Shown here piece by piece: positions 42,911 to 54,464 of a stretch of DNA of 64,000 bases. Within the stretch, counting starts at the first letter, position 1, and each line of letters starts with the position of its first letter. The notes under the pieces were generated by a model. The model was given only the letters and a program-made list of their open reading frames with translations, ran no database searches and was not told the DNA's origin. Location: contig NZ_QGMY01000008.1 of the NCBI RefSeq assembly GCF_003173355.1, forward strand, positions 186,001 through 250,000. The letters are read 5' to 3'. Both the position numbers and the translations under genes were made by a program. The DNA is from Methanospirillum lacunae (GTDB lineage Archaea > Halobacteriota > Methanomicrobia > Methanomicrobiales > Methanospirillaceae).

Positions 42911-43801
42911 ATGGAACTGAACGGTGTAACGATTGACAACACATTTGCAGAAGGATTCCCCATCTGGGTTTCCCGCGTAATTATTACCGCTGTAACCCGG
43001 GAATACGCTATGAAGGCTGCTACTGAGGCAACCGGCTTTGCAACCTCAGCTATCGGCTGTCCCTGTGAGGCAGGCATTGAGGGATACCTCAGCGGTGACG
43101 AGACTCCGGACGGACGCCCGGGCGTCTCAATTATGATCTGTGCCTCAAAGAAGAAACTTCCAGAGCAGGTTATGGAACGTATCGCAGAGTGCGTTCTTAC
43201 TGCAGCAACCACCTCTGTCTTCAATGGCCTTCCGGAGGCTGAAGAGAAGTTCGATATCAAGATTCACTTCTTTGGTGACAAGTTCGAGTCCAAGGTTGAG
43301 ATCGGCGGGCGTGCCTGCTGGAAGATCCCAATCATGGAAGGCGACTATGTTGGAGAAGAGGTCTTCGGTATGGTCAAGGGTGTTGCAGGTGGCAACTTCT
43401 TTGTCATGGCAGAGAACCAGATGGCTGCACTTCTTGGTGCACAGGCTGCATCTGATGCAATCCTCGAAGTCAAGGGAACTATCACCAGCTTCCCAGGCGG
43501 AATTGTTGCATCAGGATCCAAGGTCGGGTCCAAGAACTACAAGTTCCCAATCCCGGCAACAACCAACGAGCAGTACTGCCCAAGCATCAGAGACAAGGTT
43601 CCAGACACCAAGGTTCCAGAAGGCGTCAAGTCTATCTACGAACTCGTTATCAACGGTGTTGACGAAGCAGCAGTAAAGAAGGCAATGGCTGCCGGTATCA
43701 AGGCTGCAGTAAAAGTTCCGGGTGTAACCTTTATCAGCGCAGGCAACTACGAAGGAAAACTCGGACCCTTCCAGCTCAAACTCCACGAAATCCTTGCATA
43801 A
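42911..43801 (+). CDS. ftr: formylmethanofuran:tetrahydromethanopterin formyltransferase
   Basis: A 296-residue enzyme that moves the formyl group from formylmethanofuran to N5 of tetrahydromethanopterin, the second step of CO2 reduction to methane; it is cytosolic and usually a homotetramer. Family motifs are clear: MELNGVTIDNTFAEGFPIWV, TGFATSAIGCPCEAGIEGYL, RACWKIPIMEGDYVGEEVFG, GTITSFPGGIVASGSKVGSK and the C-terminal FISAGNYEGKLGPFQLKLHE. Acidic surface residues are common in methanogen Ftr. The ATG has GAGGATCC upstream. A strong hairpin terminator follows at 43859. The zinc-ribbon gene just upstream may be co-transcribed. Confidence 0.97.
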   Translation: MELNGVTIDNTFAEGFPIWVSRVIITAVTREYAMKAATEATGFATSAIGCPCEAGIEGYLSGDETPDGRPGVSIMICASKKKLPEQVMERIAECVLTAATTSVFNGLPEAEEKFDIKIHFFGDKFESKVEIGGRACWKIPIMEGDYVGEEVFGMVKGVAGGNFFVMAENQMAALLGAQAASDAILEVKGTITSFPGGIVASGSKVGSKNYKFPIPATTNEQYCPSIRDKVPDTKVPEGVKSIYELVINGVDEAAVKKAMAAGIKAAVKVPGVTFISAGNYEGKLGPFQLKLHEILA

Positions 43802-46809: not shown

Positions 46810-47769
46810 ATGAACCCTTCTATTCAGACAACTACTGAAGAACTTTCATCCAAAGCCAGATCTACTGAAGTGAACCTGGTAGATCCATATATTATTCATT
46901 ATCCCTGGATTACCGCTCTGGCGTCTGAAGATGGTAGTCAGGTTGAACTCATCGAATGTTTTGACTGTATCGGTGGTGCGATGTGGGTGAAGAAGCATTA
47001 TGCCAAGAGCCCGCTTGTCACCTCAGTCAGGACTGTCGGTTCGACGAACCGGTATATCCTGAAGACCGGTGCTGTTGATCTCAATCTTGAAGGCTCACGG
47101 TTTCCGGCAGGCATCTGTGCAGTCAGTCTCTCTGATTCAACAATCCAGATCTCGTACCGGGGTATGGGCGGTGGAGGGGTTGGTGCCACCATCTGTCGTG
47201 CTACAGCTGCAGGTGTCATTTCTTCAGAATGCGAGGAATCAGGGGGAGGGAAGGTTGCAGGATCTACACTGACCTTTGCCAGAAATACGAGAGTGCTTAT
47301 CGGGGTTGATGACACCGATACTCCAGAACAGGGTGCAACCTGGACCCTGGTCCACAATATCGCCCGTGCTGTGACCGGCGATCCAAAGAATGCGGGTCCC
47401 CACCGCTATCTCTCACATACCATAGTTCAACTCTTCCCGGTGCCATTCAGAACCAAGAACTGTGTCGGAGTTGTCGCCGAGTTTGCATCTACAAACCCGC
47501 AGGACCTCATTGACCGTTTTGCCGGGCTACTCAAAAAGTACACACTATCAGAAAAAACAGGCATGGCTGTGTATACCGGCTTTTCTCCAGATACTCTTCT
47601 TGCATTCGGTGAGAAGGTCAAGCGTGGTCAGGTGGAACCGGATGAGGCAGGCCGGCTGGAAGGTGGAAATCTCCGGATTATCATGAATGGCCGTGGAATT
47701 ACGGGAGCATTAGCCGCTATCCCGTTCTACACCCGGTATGATGAGGCACTGGAACTCTATGGACCTTAA
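46810..47769 (+). CDS. mmp11: methanogenesis marker protein 11
   Basis: A 319-residue protein with the features of methanogenesis marker 11, a family found in methanogens and of unknown role. Typical motifs are LIECFDCIGGAMWVKKHYA, GMGGGGVGATICRA and the core LIGVDDTDTPEQGATWTLVH, which is also found in archaeal tRNA agmatine synthetase-like proteins. It ends with NGRGITGALAAIPF. It is the first gene of an eight-gene operon with coenzyme B genes and overlaps the next gene by 11 bases. This placement suggests a role tied to coenzyme B or methyl-CoM reductase. Confidence 0.85.
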   Translation: MNPSIQTTTEELSSKARSTEVNLVDPYIIHYPWITALASEDGSQVELIECFDCIGGAMWVKKHYAKSPLVTSVRTVGSTNRYILKTGAVDLNLEGSRFPAGICAVSLSDSTIQISYRGMGGGGVGATICRATAAGVISSECEESGGGKVAGSTLTFARNTRVLIGVDDTDTPEQGATWTLVHNIARAVTGDPKNAGPHRYLSHTIVQLFPVPFRTKNCVGVVAEFASTNPQDLIDRFAGLLKKYTLSEKTGMAVYTGFSPDTLLAFGEKVKRGQVEPDEAGRLEGGNLRIIMNGRGITGALAAIPFYTRYDEALELYGP

Positions 47770-48733
47770 CCAGTGGGTAGATCTAAAAGCGCGATTACTC
47801 GCAATCGGAACGGCACAGGTCACCGGTGAACCAATAGATGAGTATGTTACCCGTTCAACTGCCGGTCCGGGAGCAGGGGGCAGAGGCTCCCTCTTCTTCT
47901 CAAATGGGAGTCATCGTGTCAGACTCTCACTGGCTGATGCATCTCCGGTTCAGATAAAACATCTCGGCGAAGGAAGGGTAGAACTCACCATTGACGGAGA
48001 GAAATTTTCCGGAGTGCTTGAGCATCCTGCCCTTCACTGCCCGAGACAGGCATACATCACCATCACACCGAGCTGCATCTTCTCCTGCCGGTATTGTAAT
48101 GTCCCGGTGCTGAAGGGAAGCCGGAAGACTCTAGAAGAGATCGAGAGCCTTGTTGAATCTGTATATGGAAAAATTGATGCGATCTCCCTGACCTCCGGTG
48201 TTCTGGAGAGCATAGAAGAAGAAGAAGCATACGCTGTGAAGGTTGTCTCGCGTCTCACCAGGTTTAACGTCCCCATCGGTGTCTCAATCTATCCTACCCT
48301 GCAGACTCCGGCAAGACTCAAGCAAGCAGGGGCAGCTGAGGTAAAATTCAACCTTGAGGCTGCAACACCGGACCTCTTTACTGCAATGTGTCCGGGACTC
48401 TCATTTGGCTCTATCAGAGATATCCTCCGGGAATCCGTCAGGCTCTTTGGAAGAGGGCATGTCTTCTCAAACATTATCCTCGGGCTTGGAGAGAGTGATG
48501 CCGAGATGCAGGATTGCATCGACTCGCTCTGTCAGGATGGAGTGATTCCGGTTATCAGGCCGCTCAACCCTATTGCAGAACTCAGTGAGTTCACAAGGCC
48601 GGATGCAGCTCGAATCGAACTCATATTCAGGTACCTTGAGGCTGCTCTGAAAAAATCAGGGCTTGACCCCTCGATGGCCCTGACGATGTGTCCGGCATGT
48701 ATGGGATGCGATATGATCCCGGGGAGGGAATGA
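47759..48733 (+). CDS. radical SAM protein of the coenzyme B operon
   Basis: A 324-residue radical SAM enzyme. The cluster motif is SCIFSCRYCNVP, with Cys106, Cys110 and Cys113. The barrel resembles biotin- and lipoyl-synthase-like enzymes in VKFNLEAATPDLFTAMCPGL and VFSNIILGLGESDAEM. A second Cys group near the C-terminus, MCPACMGCDM, may bind an auxiliary iron-sulfur cluster. The start is the ATG at 47759, which overlaps the mmp11 stop; the next gene overlaps its stop by ATGA. Substrate unknown. It lies between mmp11 and a TPP enzyme, and a carbon-sulfur or methylation reaction in cofactor assembly is possible but unproved. Confidence 0.8.
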   Translation: MDLNQWVDLKARLLAIGTAQVTGEPIDEYVTRSTAGPGAGGRGSLFFSNGSHRVRLSLADASPVQIKHLGEGRVELTIDGEKFSGVLEHPALHCPRQAYITITPSCIFSCRYCNVPVLKGSRKTLEEIESLVESVYGKIDAISLTSGVLESIEEEEAYAVKVVSRLTRFNVPIGVSIYPTLQTPARLKQAGAAEVKFNLEAATPDLFTAMCPGLSFGSIRDILRESVRLFGRGHVFSNIILGLGESDAEMQDCIDSLCQDGVIPVIRPLNPIAELSEFTRPDAARIELIFRYLEAALKKSGLDPSMALTMCPACMGCDMIPGRE

Positions 48734-49875
48734 TGTCTCCCGGTGAATCAGGTGAAGATCTGCTTGTTCGCACCATCAGGTCGTGTACTGACCGAATCTA
48801 TGCGGTTCCCGGCTATCCGGTATCTTCTCTGGCAGACCGGTCTGGTGCAAAGCTTGTCATCAACGAAAAAGTTGCCCTTGAACTGGCAATTGGTGATTCC
48901 CTGGCTGGCAGACGTGCCTGTGTTATCGTGAAACATGTAGGTATGAATGCCCTTGTCGATCCCCTGGTACATGCGACATTTCAGGGTATCAGAGCCGGTG
49001 TTATCATCATTTGCGGTGATGACCCGACCGCGAAAAACACCATGACCGTACAGGACTCCCGGTACTTTGGCCTGGTTGCTTCCATTCCTGTTCTTTCAGG
49101 TATTTCAGAGTCAGGAGTCAGCGATGCCTTATGTGCCTCCGAGCAGTATTCACGGGTTGCTCTTTTGCGGGTCAGTGCAGAAGAGATAAGTCAGCCTGCC
49201 AATACCTCACCTTCTGGATTAGTTTGTCCGGAAAACAACCCGGCCACAGGTCTTGCTGATCCTGCCCTGACGATGTACGGCAGAGCAGTCCGTGCAGCTG
49301 CAGGTTCTACCCTCATACAGAAAGCGGGTCTTGCACCACATCCTCTTCCTCCGGTTCAGTCATCATCAGCACCGCAGAACCGGAAAGAGCGTGGCAGCAC
49401 TCTAGGTCTTTGTGCTGACTGTCCGTTCAGATCGATGTTTGAACTGATGGCAAAGAAAGGAATGTCAGCAGTCTGCGATACCGGTTGCAGTCTTATTGCA
49501 ATGAACCCACCCTACTCGTTTGGGGTCGCTTGCTACGGCATGGGCTCGGCTGTCGCAGTTGCTGCATCTTCCGGTAATGCTGCACTGATTGGGGATTACG
49601 CTCTTTTACATTCTGGGCTGCAGGGACTGATGGAAGTATACCAGGAAGGGTTGCCTCTCCTCTGCATTGTGATGGTAAACCAGTGTATGGGAATGACTGG
49701 TGGTCAGCCGGTCCCTGATCCCCTGCCATACCTGGGCTTTGCTCATCCGCAGGTCTGTGATGTAAAAGACCTGAAACATCTCGAAGAATTGTTAACCATC
49801 CCAAAACGGCCGATGACAGTACTTGTCTATGGCTCTTGTCCTGAGGAGATTGATCATGAAACCGTGGCATGTTGA
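48730..49875 (+). CDS. TPP-dependent enzyme, IorA-like, possible 2-oxoacid decarboxylase
   Basis: A 381-residue protein that looks like the two TPP-enzyme halves in one chain. The N-terminal half has the pyrimidine-binding features IYAVPGYPVSSLAD and LVINEKVALELAIGDSL, where the Glu can activate TPP. The C-terminal half has IGDYALLHSGLQGLMEVYQE and MVNQCMGMTGGQPVPDPL, which match IorA and the sulfopyruvate decarboxylase group. Unlike IorA it lacks the two C-terminal ferredoxin clusters, so non-oxidative decarboxylation is more likely than ferredoxin reduction. The ATG at 48730 has GGGGAGGGA upstream. The operon is otherwise coenzyme B synthesis, where 2-oxosuberate must be decarboxylated; this gene is my best candidate for that step. 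Confidence 0.75.
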   Translation: MMSPGESGEDLLVRTIRSCTDRIYAVPGYPVSSLADRSGAKLVINEKVALELAIGDSLAGRRACVIVKHVGMNALVDPLVHATFQGIRAGVIIICGDDPTAKNTMTVQDSRYFGLVASIPVLSGISESGVSDALCASEQYSRVALLRVSAEEISQPANTSPSGLVCPENNPATGLADPALTMYGRAVRAAAGSTLIQKAGLAPHPLPPVQSSSAPQNRKERGSTLGLCADCPFRSMFELMAKKGMSAVCDTGCSLIAMNPPYSFGVACYGMGSAVAVAASSGNAALIGDYALLHSGLQGLMEVYQEGLPLLCIVMVNQCMGMTGGQPVPDPLPYLGFAHPQVCDVKDLKHLEELLTIPKRPMTVLVYGSCPEEIDHETVAC

Positions 49876-51034
49876 GATCTGTGACGTAACACTCCGCGAC
49901 GGTGAACAGACCCCCGGAGTCTCGTTCACACTTGAAGAAAAGCAGGATATCGCTCAGCGCCTTGACGCAACCGGTGTCGAGGTGATAGAGGCCGGATTTC
50001 CAATCGTTTCGGTCCATGAAAAGGAGATTGTGCGATCTGTCTCCCGAATGGGCCTTGATGCAAAGATATGCGGACTTTCACGAGCTTGTCGTGAGGATGT
50101 TGATGCAGCCCTTGATGCCGAAGTTGACATGATCGGTCTGTTTGTAGCCACATCAGACCTCCATATCAAACATAAATACAAAAAGTCTCGGGAAGAGGTT
50201 GTTGCAAATGCCCTCACGCAATGTGATTACGCCATTGATCACGGACTCATTGTCAGGTTCGGTGCCGAGGATGCTTCCCGGACACCACTTCCGGTTCTCA
50301 TAGACATCTACAGGCAGGCTGCAGAGCATAAGGCTAGTTATGTCACCTTTGCAGACACCACCGGACGACTTACCCCACTTGAGGTAGCCACAATCATCCC
50401 TGAACTCGTCAGGAATGTACCGGTTCCGATAGCGATGCATAGTCATAATGACCTTGGATGTGCCACGGCAAACACAATCATCGCAGCCGAGCTTGGTGCC
50501 TACCAGTTGCACACAACGGTGAACGGGCTTGGTGAGCGGGCTGGAAACGCCAGCCTCGAAGAGGTGCTTGTTACACTCGCTCTGAAAGGAGGAATCAGCC
50601 GGTATGATATGACCCAGATTCCTGCTCTTTCTAAGAAGATCCAGCAGTATACCGGGATCATGATGCCTGCGACCAAGCCGGTGGTCGGGTCAAATGCATT
50701 TGCACATGAGAGTGGGATTCACATCGCTGCTATTCTAGAAAATCCTGAAACGTACGAGTTTGTTCCGCCGCAGCTCCTTGGACTGGATCGGCAGTTCATT
50801 CTTGGAAAACACACCGGAAAACGAGCCCTCACTCACATTCTCACGACATTCGGGTATCAACTCCCTGATGATGAGATCATGAAAGTTCTTGAAGAGATCA
50901 AGAAACAGAGCGAAGGCAAGTGTGTCATATCCCCACAGATTCTGCAGGATATCATTCGAAACGAAACCGGAAAGGAGATTATCAATGGAAACTCTGTCAG
51001 AGAAGATACTGGGTGCTCAGGCCGGAAGTTTTAG
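49856..51034 (+). CDS. aksA: homocitrate synthase AksA (trans-homoaconitate synthase)
   Basis: A 392-residue enzyme of the LeuA/homocitrate synthase family. It condenses 2-oxoglutarate and its longer homologs with acetyl-CoA, starting the chain extension toward 2-oxosuberate for coenzyme B. Motifs: ICDVTLRDGEQTPGVSF, metal-binding IAMHSHNDLGCATANTI, VNGLGERAGNASLEEV and SNAFAHESGIHIAAIL. The ATG at 49856 follows GGAGATTGATC; it overlaps the upstream gene by 20 bases and the downstream aksD by 50. Assignment to AksA rather than LeuA rests mainly on the linked aksD, aksE and aksF genes. Confidence 0.9.
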   Translation: MKPWHVEICDVTLRDGEQTPGVSFTLEEKQDIAQRLDATGVEVIEAGFPIVSVHEKEIVRSVSRMGLDAKICGLSRACREDVDAALDAEVDMIGLFVATSDLHIKHKYKKSREEVVANALTQCDYAIDHGLIVRFGAEDASRTPLPVLIDIYRQAAEHKASYVTFADTTGRLTPLEVATIIPELVRNVPVPIAMHSHNDLGCATANTIIAAELGAYQLHTTVNGLGERAGNASLEEVLVTLALKGGISRYDMTQIPALSKKIQQYTGIMMPATKPVVGSNAFAHESGIHIAAILENPETYEFVPPQLLGLDRQFILGKHTGKRALTHILTTFGYQLPDDEIMKVLEEIKKQSEGKCVISPQILQDIIRNETGKEIINGNSVREDTGCSGRKF

Positions 51035-52202
51035 TGACAAACAGATTGACAAAGCATTCTGTCATGACGGTACCGGTATTCAGGCCAAGATAATTTATGA
51101 TGAAATGGGAGCTCCGGGGATTGTAAACCCTGAAGCCTGCTATGTGATTTATGATCACATCGCCCCTGCCAATACCAGCCAGACTGCTGATCTTCACCGT
51201 GAACTCCGGGATTTTGCAACAAAGTCCGGTATGCACTTCTCTGACATCGGTGGTGGTATCTGTCACCAGTACATGGCTGAAGGACGTGTTCTTCCCGGTG
51301 AAGTTGTCATTGGTGCTGATTCACATTCCTGTACACTTGGGGCCCTTGGTGCATTTGCGACCGGAGTCGGGGCTAGTGATATGGCAGGAATCTGGGTATC
51401 AGGAGAGACATGGCTCCGGGTTCCTGAAAGCATTGCACTCTACATCTCCGGGACTTTGGGAAAAGGTGTTGAGTACAAGGATCTTGCACTCTGTTATGTT
51501 GCAAATCTGGGGATGGATGGTGCTACGTACAAGAGCCTTGAGTTTCGTGTTGATTCGACATCAGAAATCCCAATGGAAGGCAGGCTCACGCTTAGTAACA
51601 TGGCTGTTGAAGCCGGGGCAAAGACCGGTCTCTGGTATGCAGACAGAATTACCCGGGAATACCTTGCCAGATACGGGCAGACCTGCCAGGATCAAAAACC
51701 TCACGATGAACCGTTTTATACTCAAGAGATTTGGTGGGAGCTTGATGACTTAGAACCGTGTCTTGCTGTTCCCCACCGGGTTGATACCGTAAAATCCGTA
51801 TCTGAACTTGCAGGAACCCCTCTCGATCAGGTCTTTATCGGGACCTGTACGAATGGGAGGTTTGAAGACCTGGCCCGTGCAGCAGCAATTCTGGATGGGA
51901 AATCTGTGGCAGTCAGAACCATTGTTGTTCCTGCATCACAAGCTGATTACCTGCAGGCTGCCACATCGGGTGTTTTGGCAACCCTTGTTGCTGCCGGTTG
52001 CACGGTGTGTTCTCCCGGGTGTGGGCCATGTCTTGGTGCTCATATGGGAGTGCTTGGCGATGGAGAGGTCGGGCTCTCAACTGCGAACCGGAACTTTAGA
52101 AATCGGATGGGTGTTGGTGCATCCTATTACCTCTCTTCGCCATCAACTGCAGCAGCCAGTGCAATAGCAGGGGAGATTGCTGATCCCAGGGAGGCTGTAT
52201 GA
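50985..52202 (+). CDS. aksD: homoaconitase large subunit AksD
   Basis: A 405-residue [4Fe-4S] dehydratase subunit. Cluster-binding residues lie in FIGTCTNGRFEDLA and CSPGCGPCLGAHMGV. Other motifs are FSDIGGGICHQYM, GADSHSCTLGALGAFATGVG and CTVCSPGCGPCLG. It hydrates cis-homoaconitate and longer homologs in each round of 2-oxoacid elongation. The start is the ATG at 50985 with GGAGATTATCA upstream, not the earlier frame that overlaps aksA more. It overlaps aksE by four bases (ATGA). Confidence 0.9.
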   Translation: METLSEKILGAQAGSFSDKQIDKAFCHDGTGIQAKIIYDEMGAPGIVNPEACYVIYDHIAPANTSQTADLHRELRDFATKSGMHFSDIGGGICHQYMAEGRVLPGEVVIGADSHSCTLGALGAFATGVGASDMAGIWVSGETWLRVPESIALYISGTLGKGVEYKDLALCYVANLGMDGATYKSLEFRVDSTSEIPMEGRLTLSNMAVEAGAKTGLWYADRITREYLARYGQTCQDQKPHDEPFYTQEIWWELDDLEPCLAVPHRVDTVKSVSELAGTPLDQVFIGTCTNGRFEDLARAAAILDGKSVAVRTIVVPASQADYLQAATSGVLATLVAAGCTVCSPGCGPCLGAHMGVLGDGEVGLSTANRNFRNRMGVGASYYLSSPSTAAASAIAGEIADPREAV

Positions 52203-52687
52203 CCCTCATTGCAGGTTCTGGTCCGGCTGTCTGCATCGGGGAGGATATTGATACAGACCTTGTCATTGCAGGCAGGTATCTCAGAACCAAAGATCGAAGC
52301 GTCTGGGCTGAACATGCCTTTGAAGATCTGGATCCCACCATTGCACCCCGTCTGAAAGGATGTGTGCTTGTTGCAGGCAAGAATATGGGGTGTGGGTCCT
52401 CTCGTGAGCAGGCGGTTATGGCCCTGCGTGAGGCTGGAGTTCTTGCTGTTGTTGCCCCTTCGTTTGCACGGATATTTTTCAGGAATTGTATTAACGTAGG
52501 CATTCCGGTGCTTGAATGTGAAGAATTCCCCTGTACAAACGGAGAGATGGTTACGTATGACTGTAGGACCGGGATGATGAGAACAGACAGGGTAACACGT
52601 GAATGTCTCTCACTCTCACCCAGGATGCAGGAGATCCTGGAGGCCGGTGGTCTTGTAGAGTACTGGAAAAGGAGACTTTCCAGATGA
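52199..52687 (+). CDS. aksE: homoaconitase small subunit AksE
   Basis: A 162-residue small subunit. The substrate-specificity loop reads AGRYLRTKD; YLRT is the version known from the broad-range homoaconitase of methanogens, whereas isopropylmalate isomerases have other residues at this place. Other motifs are NMGCGSSREQAVMALREAGV and FARIFFRNCINVGIPVLE. It closes the active site formed with AksD. Its start overlaps the aksD stop and its stop overlaps the next start by ATGA. Confidence 0.9.
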   Translation: MTLIAGSGPAVCIGEDIDTDLVIAGRYLRTKDRSVWAEHAFEDLDPTIAPRLKGCVLVAGKNMGCGSSREQAVMALREAGVLAVVAPSFARIFFRNCINVGIPVLECEEFPCTNGEMVTYDCRTGMMRTDRVTRECLSLSPRMQEILEAGGLVEYWKRRLSR

Positions 52688-53481
52688 TCTTTCCACCGCA
52701 TTGCAAATGTGTCGGGTATGCAGGTGAAAAACCGGTAGGTGATCAGGTCTATTTTCTCTCACAGTACCTCCTTCACGAGGTCCCGGAAGGTTTTGAGATC
52801 CTCTCTGTCGAGGCAGGGGAAGGGTCCGGTATGATGAGGCCGGTTAAATCGGTGAGTCTGATTGCATCTGCTGATGAGGTCTATCAGTACCCGGAGCGGG
52901 TGATTTTGCATAACCGGGGTGACCTGATTCGCCGGGCTGCAGAGACCGGAAAACGATGTACCATTTTTACCGGCATTGACGAGCACAAGACCTTCGTCTG
53001 TGATCCTGATCCTGGAGCCCTCTCTACAGTCCATGTGTATGATGTGACACCACCGAGAGCCCATCTTGCAGAGACCATCAGGGCACTTGAGGCAACCGGA
53101 CTCTTTGGTGAATTAGAGATCCAGTTTGAGTATCATGTCCGGGATATCAGGGAGACCGGAGCAGATGTCTTTCCCTGCCGGGCTGGAGGTTTTTCCAGGA
53201 CAATTGATTCAGATCACCTCACCGGTAGTGAACAGGTTGCAGGATGTATGACTGCACGGCAGGTCCTTTCTGATTGTTATGGCAAAGACTTCCCGGTTAT
53301 TGATATATGTCCGGCAAATGCCGCTCACGAAGAACTGTTCATTGCCCGGTGCTGCAGGGCTGAACGGACGGGAGTTCAGACAATAAACGGGAAGTATGGC
53401 GTGGTTGTACACTGGGGAGCCTCTCCGAAACAGATTGCAGATGCGGTGTATGAATTGATGAATGAGAGGAAAAACAGATGA
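52684..53481 (+). CDS. unknown conserved-looking protein inside the aks operon
   Basis: A 265-residue cytosolic protein that I do not recognise. It starts MIFPPHCKCVGYAGEKPVGD at the ATG at 52684. Its middle reads IFTGIDEHKTFVCDPDPGAL, HVYDVTPPRAHLAETIRALE and FQFEYHVRD-like strands, and its end is YGVVVHWGASPKQIADAVYE. Cys and His residues are frequent (CKC, RCC, VCDPD), so metal binding is possible. No membrane segment. ATGA overlaps link it to aksE before and aksF after, which argues for a role in coenzyme B synthesis or its control. No reaction can be given. Confidence 0.7.
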   Translation: MIFPPHCKCVGYAGEKPVGDQVYFLSQYLLHEVPEGFEILSVEAGEGSGMMRPVKSVSLIASADEVYQYPERVILHNRGDLIRRAAETGKRCTIFTGIDEHKTFVCDPDPGALSTVHVYDVTPPRAHLAETIRALEATGLFGELEIQFEYHVRDIRETGADVFPCRAGGFSRTIDSDHLTGSEQVAGCMTARQVLSDCYGKDFPVIDICPANAAHEELFIARCCRAERTGVQTINGKYGVVVHWGASPKQIADAVYELMNERKNR

Positions 53482-54464
53482 AAGTAGTGGTTGCACCTGG
53501 TGATGGTATCGGTCCTGAAGTGATCGCACCGGCAGTTGATGTCCTCAAGATTTTTCATCCTGAATGGGAGTACAGTCAGGTATATCTCGGATATGAGTGC
53601 TGGAAGCGGACCGGTGATCCACTCTCACAGACAACCCGATCTGCCCTAAAGGAAGCAGACCTGATCCTTTTCGGAGCTATCACTACACCGCCTGATCCGG
53701 CATATAAAAGTGTCATTCTCACCATCAGAAAGGAACTTGACCTCTATGCAAATTTACGGCCGGTTTTTGGGTCAGGCTTTGATATCCTGATTGTTCGTGA
53801 GAATACTGAAGGCCTCTATTCCGGGATTGAATGGGAGGAGAAGGACCGGGCCTGCACAATCCGTCTGGTGACCGAGGAAGGTTCACGAAGAATAGCACGG
53901 TTTGCAAGTTCATGTGCCCGCAGAAGAAGACGTCATCTGACAATTGGTAACAAGGCAAACATCTTAAAGTCAGATGTCTTTTTCGTTCGGATCTGCCAGG
54001 AAGAAGCAGAAAAAATCGATGTCTCGGTTGACAAAAAATACATTGATGCCCTGGTTCTTGATGTGCTCCAGCATCCGGAGCGGTATGATGTAATAGTCAC
54101 CACTAATATTTTTGGTGACATTCTTTCTGATGCTGCTGCCTACCTTGAGGGAGGGCTTGGGATGCTTCCAAGTGCAAACATCGGAAAAGACCATGCTCTT
54201 TTTGAGCCTGTACACGGCAGTGCTCCAGATATTGCAGGAAAAGGCATTGCGAACCCCATTGCAGCTATCAGGTGTATCTCATTGCTCCTGAAGTATGCTC
54301 AGGAGAGGGAGAATGCAAAGATTGTAGAGGCTGCAATCCAGAAGGTGCTTGCAGACGGGATAAAAACTCCTGACCTTGGCGGGAAAGCTGGGACGAAAGA
54401 GGTTGGTGAGGCTGTGATAAAAGAGATCATCAGGATGCGAGAAATACCGGGGCCTGACCTCTGA
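53478..54464 (+). CDS. aksF: homoisocitrate dehydrogenase AksF
   Basis: A 328-residue enzyme of the isocitrate/isopropylmalate dehydrogenase family. It oxidises and decarboxylates threo-homoisocitrate and its homologs to the next 2-oxo acid with NAD. Motifs: VVAPGDGIGPEVIAPAVDV, LDLYANLRPVFGSGFDIL, IVRENTEGLYSGIEW, LTIGNKANILKSDV, IVTTNIFGDILSDAAAYLEG and EPVHGSAPDIAGKGIANPI. Metal-binding Asp residues in NIFGDILSDAA are present. It is the last gene of the eight-gene operon and overlaps the previous gene by ATGA. Confidence 0.9.
   Translation: MKVVVAPGDGIGPEVIAPAVDVLKIFHPEWEYSQVYLGYECWKRTGDPLSQTTRSALKEADLILFGAITTPPDPAYKSVILTIRKELDLYANLRPVFGSGFDILIVRENTEGLYSGIEWEEKDRACTIRLVTEEGSRRIARFASSCARRRRRHLTIGNKANILKSDVFFVRICQEEAEKIDVSVDKKYIDALVLDVLQHPERYDVIVTTNIFGDILSDAAAYLEGGLGMLPSANIGKDHALFEPVHGSAPDIAGKGIANPIAAIRCISLLLKYAQERENAKIVEAAIQKVLADGIKTPDLGGKAGTKEVGEAVIKEIIRMREIPGPDL

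What the first reader, a model, noticed from the sequence alone, without database searches (positions are those of the whole stretch)
48730..49875. Candidate 2-oxosuberate decarboxylase
Coenzyme B synthesis needs decarboxylation of 2-oxosuberate to 7-oxoheptanoate, and to my knowledge that enzyme is not assigned. This gene encodes a TPP enzyme like IorA but without ferredoxin clusters, directly before aksA. The missing clusters favour simple decarboxylation, as in sulfopyruvate decarboxylase of coenzyme M synthesis.
Basis: inference. Interest (0 to 1): 0.8.

Follow-up and report, generated by a model that had tools for sequence, protein, structure and literature searches.

The report
Candidate decarboxylase of coenzyme B synthesis
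In the coenzyme B operon of a methane-producing archaeon sits a small thiamine-dependent enzyme, carved out of a larger redox enzyme, that is the best candidate yet for a missing step in making coenzyme B, the thiol that releases methane; the reaction itself has not been measured.

Summary
The gene is real (48730-49875, +, 381 aa). It is the third of eight overlapping genes: MMP11, radical SAM, TPP enzyme, AksA, AksD, AksE, XcbA-family, AksF. It belongs to a methanogen-specific clade split off from IorA. It keeps the TPP site but has no ferredoxin domain, no IorA domain II and no gamma-subunit gene in its neighbourhood. Its active-site loop differs: IorA YPGTPS is VPGYPV here, and GDS is GDY.

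Context supports a coenzyme B role beyond one operon. The gene lies beside aks genes in Methanomicrobiales, Methanocella-like archaea, ANME-2-like Methanosarcinales and some Methanomassiliicoccales, in at least four gene orders. Elsewhere in Methanosarcinales it follows MMP11. Genomes with it carry a homoaconitase-type small subunit (YLRT, as in M. jannaschii homoaconitase); none of 27 MCR-bearing genomes without it does in its best-scoring small subunit. ComDE and IorAB are separate genes here.

The established pathway has one thiamine-type step, decarboxylation of 2-oxosuberate, so that is the best assignment, by inference. Methanococcales and Methanobacteriales could not be searched. No activity is shown.

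The parts
46810..47769 (+). Methanogenesis marker protein 11 (MMP11), TiaS-like kinase domain
   Evidence: TIGR03280 333 bits, above its cut-off; PF22641 TiaS_TCKD 36 bits; overlaps next gene
47738..48733 (+). Radical SAM protein of unassigned function
   Evidence: PF04055 46 bits; only weak matches to MSMEG_0568 and LipS2 models
48730..49875 (+). IorA-derived TPP enzyme (PYR domain plus PP domain), candidate 2-oxosuberate decarboxylase
48865..48867 (+). Codon of Glu46, predicted TPP-activating glutamate of the PYR domain (invariant with Lys47 and Glu51)
   Evidence: invariant in the 40-row alignment; role inferred from position in TPP enzymes
48805..48822 (+). Codons of V26-V31 (VPGYPV), remodelled substrate loop (YPGTPS in IorA)
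49411..49413 (+). Codon of Cys228, first of four near-invariant cysteines (C228, C231, C253, C370) matching proximal 4Fe-4S ligands
49591..49680 (+). Mg-TPP motif G288-D289 ... N317 (GDY...N)
   Evidence: PF02775 match residues 253-329
49856..51034 (+). AksA-type isopropylmalate/homocitrate synthase family
   Evidence: PF00682 and HCS_D2; NCBIfam subfamily scores below equivalog cut-offs
50985..52202 (+). AksD, homoaconitase-family large subunit
   Evidence: hacA_fam TIGR01343 461 bits, above cut-off
52199..52687 (+). AksE, small subunit with the YLRT loop of M. jannaschii homoaconitase
   Evidence: LEUD_arch 156 bits; YLRT aligned with 2PKP
52684..53481 (+). XcbA-family / DUF7714 protein, possible aldehyde-to-thiol enzyme
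   Evidence: PF24830 308 bits; NF052538 XcbA 61 bits, below its cut-off of 150
53478..54464 (+). AksF-type isohomocitrate dehydrogenase family
   Evidence: LEU3_arch 389 bits, PF00180 321 bits

Best explanation
The protein is a thiamine-diphosphate 2-oxoacid decarboxylase of coenzyme B synthesis. After AksA, AksDE and AksF have lengthened 2-oxoglutarate three times to 2-oxosuberate, the protein's PYR and PP domains, probably as a dimer with TPP and Mg at the interface, attack the 2-keto carbon, release CO2 and protonate the enamine to give 7-oxoheptanoate. Another protein, perhaps the XcbA-family product of the same operon, then turns this aldehyde into 7-mercaptoheptanoate. The enzyme arose from an indolepyruvate oxidoreductase alpha subunit by loss of the ferredoxin domain, of the gamma partner and, in Methanomicrobiales, of domain II, with replacement of the substrate loop. 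Shown here: gene, family, domain losses, residue changes, linkage and co-occurrence. Inferred: substrate, non-oxidative outcome, dimer, and the presence of a retained 4Fe-4S cluster.
For: Operon position and overlaps. Eight-gene order kept in 27 Methanomicrobiales loci not cut by contig ends. TPP-AksA-AksD-AksE-AksF in Methanomassiliicoccales, and other orders beside aks in Methanocella-like, f7, f24, f28 and ANME-2-like genomes. Clade of 43 rows, SH-aLRT 100, apart from IorA of the same genomes. No gamma subunit in 77 family loci, against 15 of 17 bacterial and 13 of 15 archaeal IorA loci that have one; all five gamma genes of the window's genome lie beside other oxidoreductases. VPGYPV and GDY replace YPGTPS and GDS. 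Family versus MCR in 197 genomes: 78 both, 5 family only, 32 MCR only, 82 neither. YLRT-type AksE in 41 of 41 linked loci and 21 of 22 family-bearing genomes elsewhere, against 0 of 27 MCR-bearing genomes without the family, best-scoring small subunit; YLRT is in the solved M. jannaschii homoaconitase 2PKP. ComDE is a separate gene. The model (pLDDT 92) aligns over its whole length with acetolactate synthases and benzoylformate decarboxylase, Z 26-28. PMC3087415 lists the pathway with 2 unknown proteins; PMC12068725 (2025) calls it still unknown.
Against: Four cysteines matching the proximal 4Fe-4S ligands are conserved in 75 of 76 members, unexpected for a purely non-redox decarboxylase. No substrate evidence exists: solved TPP enzymes match only weakly by sequence. 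The family is absent from ANME-1-like, Archaeoglobi-like and other MCR-bearing groups and from most Methanomassiliicoccales, and could not be sought in Methanococcales or Methanobacteriales, so the step must have another solution there or these lack the pathway. In Methanosarcinaceae the gene is next to MMP11, not aks. The co-occurrence tests are not corrected for phylogeny.
Confidence: 0.72

Rival explanations
1. It is a coenzyme B pathway TPP enzyme but a redox one: it oxidatively decarboxylates 2-oxosuberate to a pimeloyl thioester or similar, passing electrons through the retained 4Fe-4S cluster to a separate acceptor, and a later reductase makes the aldehyde or thiol.
For: Four near-invariant cysteines in the proximal-cluster pattern; single-cluster 2-oxoacid oxidoreductases without a ferredoxin domain exist (own knowledge, Sulfolobus OFOR); some bacterial IorA lack the ferredoxin domain.
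Against: No gamma subunit, the CoA-binding part of these enzymes, in any of 77 family loci or unpaired in the window's genome; the Thr of the oxidoreductase loop YPGTPS is replaced by Tyr/Phe; no acyl-CoA reductase in the operon.
Confidence: 0.13
2. It is an aryl-pyruvate (indolepyruvate-like) oxidoreductase or decarboxylase that lies beside aks for other reasons.
For: Best named model is IOR_alpha; IorA is the sister group.
Against: Score far below the IOR_alpha cut-off (124 of 651); true IorAB is present separately in the same genome; family near-restricted to MCR-bearing archaea and linked to aks and MMP11 in several arrangements.
Confidence: 0.05
3. It is a decarboxylase for another acid of the same pathway or for coenzyme M (2-oxoadipate, 2-oxopimelate, sulfopyruvate), or a carboligase.
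For: TPP decarboxylase-like fold; the same operon makes C6 to C8 2-oxodiacids.
Against: ComDE is present separately; decarboxylating C6 or C7 acids would drain the pathway; no carboligation step is known in coenzyme B synthesis (own knowledge).
Confidence: 0.1

Closest known systems
Indolepyruvate ferredoxin oxidoreductase alpha subunit (IorA, TIGR03336)
   Same: Sequence ancestry, PYR and PP domains, NEKVALE and GD...N motifs, four proximal-cluster cysteines
   Different: No ferredoxin domain, no IorB gamma partner, no domain II in Methanomicrobiales/Methanomassiliicoccales, changed loop (VPGYPV, GDY), separate clade, beside aks
Sulfopyruvate decarboxylase ComDE (coenzyme M synthesis)
   Same: Works like it by hypothesis: small PYR+PP TPP enzyme decarboxylating an acidic 2-oxoacid to an aldehyde that then becomes a thiol
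   Different: Not the same family: ComDE is a separate 370-aa gene in this genome found by TIGR03846, and the target is not listed under that model
Benzoylformate decarboxylase / acetolactate synthase superfamily
   Same: Overall PYR/PP fold, Z 26-28 over about 330 residues
   Different: 13-17% identity; target lacks their central domain; different origin
XcbA and MMP16/ComF aldehyde-to-thiol enzymes
   Same: Chemically the next step; an XcbA-family gene lies in the operon
   Different: Different proteins; XcbA and MMP16 act in coenzyme M synthesis (PMC11507031; PMC12068725)

Membership tests
IorA (TIGR03336 equivalog) | Score above the curated cut-off of 651 bits | tested here: not met
   124 bits for the window protein; 115 to 283 for relatives
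IorA (TIGR03336 equivalog) | C-terminal two-cluster ferredoxin domain | tested here: not met
   No CxxCxxCxxxC motif in any of 77 family loci; present in 14 of 15 archaeal IorA loci. Weak criterion: some bacterial IorA also lack it.
IorA (TIGR03336 equivalog) | IorB (gamma) partner gene adjacent | tested here: not met
   0 of 77 family loci; five gamma genes of the genome all paired elsewhere
2-oxoacid:ferredoxin oxidoreductase superfamily | YPxTPS loop with conserved Thr | tested here: not met
   Thr in 32 of 32 IorA, Tyr/Phe in 73 of 76 family members
2-oxoacid:ferredoxin oxidoreductase superfamily | Four cysteine ligands of the proximal 4Fe-4S cluster | tested here: met
   C228, C231, C253, C370 in 75 of 76 members; the cluster itself is not shown
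TPP-dependent enzyme | Mg-TPP motif GD...N and PYR glutamate | tested here: met
   G288, D289, N317, E46 invariant in the 40-row alignment; PF02775 above cut-off
ComDE sulfopyruvate decarboxylase | Match to TIGR03846 (ComE) | tested here: not met
   Genome-wide search finds ComDE at C2 with 242 bits; the target is not among the listed matches
Coenzyme B synthesis gene | Linkage to homoaconitase-type aks genes | tested here: met
2-oxosuberate decarboxylase | Converts 2-oxosuberate to 7-oxoheptanoate and CO2 | not testable with these tools
   Needs an enzyme assay

The most novel reading that the evidence does not exclude
The operon may encode nearly all of coenzyme B synthesis: AksA/DE/F for chain growth, this IorA-derived TPP enzyme as a 2-oxosuberate decarboxylase that keeps one 4Fe-4S cluster beside TPP, the XcbA-family protein for aldehyde-to-thiol conversion, and MMP11, with its TiaS-type kinase domain, as kinase of the threonine moiety. 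That would fill several unassigned steps at once and include an iron-sulfur TPP decarboxylase.
Probability: 0.3. Interest if true: 0.9.

Novelty: new variant of a known kind. Interest (0 to 1): 0.77.

Why it matters
Coenzyme B is the thiol that methyl-coenzyme M reductase uses to release methane. Its synthesis has been known as chemistry for decades, but the enzymes after 2-oxosuberate are listed as unknown in the papers held here. A named gene with a clear assay and a knock-out route in Methanosarcina makes the step directly testable. It would also correct the annotation of many archaeal proteins whose best named match is indolepyruvate oxidoreductase, point to a possible new use of an iron-sulfur TPP enzyme, and offer a target close to the methane-forming step.

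Tried and rejected
Rejected: that it is the ordinary IorA of the genome (true IorA lies at C17 with IorB and forms another clade). Rejected: that it is ComDE (separate gene). Rejected as an argument: a missing ferredoxin domain proves a decarboxylase (Bacteroidales IorA also lack it yet have gamma). Considered: that the operon is leucine synthesis; a separate LeuD with FLTI instead of YLRT lies at C17, and AksE matches M. jannaschii homoaconitase. Led nowhere: direct sequence search of the PDB; the profile search gave only weak TPP-enzyme matches. OFOR structures were not among the top 50 of the structure comparison, which shows nothing about membership. Paper searches for 2-oxosuberate decarboxylase, MMP11 and ComDE oxygen sensitivity found no assignment. 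Class I methanogens could not be reached with the search handles. G162 (L199) scores like a family member but has IorA-like residues (GSP, GDS) and no YLRT AksE; I do not count it as a clear member.

Full report
The finding. The window lies in a methanogen of the Methanomicrobiales (G000:C8:186001-250000); its nearest named relatives by tree are Methanospirillaceae. The named gene is real: ATG at 48730, stop at 49875, 381 codons, no internal stop. It overlaps the radical SAM gene before it (ATGA) and aksA after it (20 bases). All seven junctions of the eight-gene run overlap: MMP11 46810-47769, radical SAM 47738-48733, TPP enzyme 48730-49875, AksA 49856-51034, AksD 50985-52202, AksE 52199-52687, XcbA family 52684-53481, AksF 53478-54464. 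So one translationally coupled operon is likely (inference from overlaps).

What the protein is. Pfam finds the TPP-binding C-terminal domain above its cut-off and the N-terminal TPP domain just below. The closest NCBIfam model is IOR_alpha at 124 bits against a cut-off of 651. A 24-row alignment of relatives from the same order shows invariant E46, K47, E51, G288, D289, N317 and four cysteines; all stay invariant in a 40-row alignment that includes members of other orders. AlphaFold2 gives a confident single-chain model, pLDDT 91.7, pTM 0.92, which aligns along its whole length with acetolactate synthase, pyruvate oxidase and benzoylformate decarboxylase structures at Z 26 to 28. This shows a shared PYR/PP fold, not a function.

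Not the ordinary IorA. A tree of 75 proteins puts the methanogen family in one clade of 43 rows (SH-aLRT 100), apart from IorA proteins of the same genomes (quick search, no bootstrap). None of 77 family loci encodes a gamma subunit in the DNA fetched (up to 10 kb a side, less in some), whereas 15 of 17 bacterial and 13 of 15 archaeal IorA loci do. In the window's genome the five gamma genes all lie beside other oxidoreductase subunits. The ferredoxin motif is absent from all family loci. The versions in Methanosarcinales (about 500 aa) keep a domain between PYR and PP that the 360-450 aa versions of Methanomicrobiales and Methanomassiliicoccales lack. The IorA loop YPGTPS, with Tyr26, Thr29 and Ser31 in 32, 32 and 31 of 32 IorA sequences, reads V-P-G-Y/F-P-V/I in the family (V26 in 74 of 76, Y/F29 in 73, V/I31 in 75), and GDS becomes GDY or GDF in 74 of 76. 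That the Thr contacts substrate in this enzyme class is my own knowledge, not tested.

A correction. That is true only for the C-terminal ferredoxin domain. C228, C231, C253 and C370 align with invariant IorA cysteines and persist in 75 of 76 family members; the one exception, L200, has lost all four yet still sits in an aks operon. The pattern CxxC-C-C is that of the proximal cluster in pyruvate-type oxidoreductases (own knowledge). The enzyme thus probably binds one 4Fe-4S cluster. Loss of the ferredoxin domain is also a poor argument by itself, because some bacterial IorA proteins without it are still encoded beside a gamma subunit (L110, L113, L122, L123).

Why coenzyme B. First, linkage: 27 Methanomicrobiales loci keep the eight-gene order and six more, cut by contig ends, agree with it. 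In Methanomassiliicoccales, another phylum, the order is TPP-AksA-AksD-AksE-AksF without the other three genes (L080, L082, L084, L189-L192); these proteins branch inside the Methanomicrobiales, which suggests transfer of the block. Methanocella-like (f14) and f7 genomes have TPP(+) AksA(-) AksD, AksE, AksF, XcbA(+); ANME-2-like and f28 genomes have TPP(+) AksA(-) AksD(+); L200 has AksA-AksD-AksE-AksF-TPP. So the association survived rearrangement. In Methanosarcina, Methanothrix, Methanoperedens and Methanohalophilus the gene directly follows MMP11 instead, the same marker gene that opens the window's operon. Lineage names for unnamed G genomes are my guesses from size and tree; L-numbered loci carry record titles.

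Second, co-occurrence. In 197 genomes of the phylum, 78 have both the family and MCR, 5 the family only, 32 MCR only, 82 neither (Fisher p 2e-22, not corrected for phylogeny; I split family from IorA by a score of at least 118 bits). Of the five, three are Methanomicrobiales where MCR may be missing from the assembly, one is L200's genome, and one (G162) is a doubtful member. In the phylum of Methanomassiliicoccales, 5 of 26 MCR genomes and 0 of 168 others have it. Third, the pathway marker: the small subunit AksE of the operon reads YLRT in the substrate loop, as does the solved M. jannaschii homoaconitase small subunit 2PKP, while the isopropylmalate/citramalate isomerase 3VBA reads YLVY. 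That this region sets specificity is reported in PMC7308503, citing Jeyakanthan 2010. All 41 small subunits linked to the family have YLRT, YLRS or YLRR; 21 of 22 family-bearing genomes elsewhere have YLRT or YLRS; among 27 MCR genomes without the family that returned a small subunit, the best-scoring one never has it. The window's own LeuD, at C17, has FLTI.

Mechanism. The known pathway makes 2-oxosuberate by three rounds of AksA, AksDE and AksF and then needs its decarboxylation to the semialdehyde (PMC3087415). This is the only step in that list that calls for TPP chemistry. Without gamma subunit and distal clusters, the TPP enamine would be protonated and released as aldehyde rather than oxidised to a thioester. 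I put this at 0.72; membership in coenzyme B synthesis of some kind I would put at about 0.9. The retained cluster is the main unexplained feature; it may be structural, may keep the enzyme inactive under oxygen, or may signal a redox reaction (rival 1).

Known or new. PMC3087415 counts two unknown coenzyme B proteins; PMC12068725 (2025) says the pathway is still unknown and suspects COG1900 proteins for the thiol step in Methanosarcina. I found no paper naming a 2-oxosuberate decarboxylase, but subscription journals and preprints are not in the library, so an earlier assignment cannot be excluded. Gaps: Methanococcales and Methanobacteriales were out of reach of the searches; ANME-1-like, Archaeoglobi-like and most Methanomassiliicoccales lack both the family and the YLRT subunit, so they either take up coenzyme B or use other genes.

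Noticed in passing
52684-53481: XcbA-family/DUF7714 gene inside the aks operon of Methanomicrobiales and also beside aks in Methanocella-like and f7 genomes (L196, L197, L198). XcbA is treated as the enzyme acting on sulfoacetaldehyde in bacterial coenzyme M synthesis (PMC11507031), so this is a candidate for the aldehyde-to-thiol step of coenzyme B.
   Followed up: partly
46810-47769: MMP11, a methanogenesis marker of unknown function with a TiaS-type threonine/cytidine kinase domain, is the first gene of the operon and directly precedes the TPP gene in Methanosarcinales; a candidate kinase for the phosphothreonine part of coenzyme B.
   Followed up: partly
47738-48733: Radical SAM protein conserved between MMP11 and the TPP gene in Methanomicrobiales and near both in L196; only weak matches to lipoyl synthase-like models; function unknown.
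   Followed up: no
L200:3995-5524: A family member that has lost all four cluster cysteines but lies at the end of an AksA-AksD-AksE-AksF operon in a genome where no MCR was found; its AksE reads YLRR.
   Followed up: partly
L205-L234: MCR-bearing genomes without the TPP family (ANME-1-like, Archaeoglobi-like, most Methanomassiliicoccales) show no YLRT-type homoaconitase small subunit among their best matches: possible coenzyme B auxotrophs or users of another route.
   Followed up: partly
42911-43801: Formylmethanofuran:H4MPT formyltransferase (ftr) lies about 3 kb upstream of the operon; relatives of it lie upstream in several Methanomicrobiales, and in several genomes mcrA lies 15-20 kb away.
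   Followed up: no
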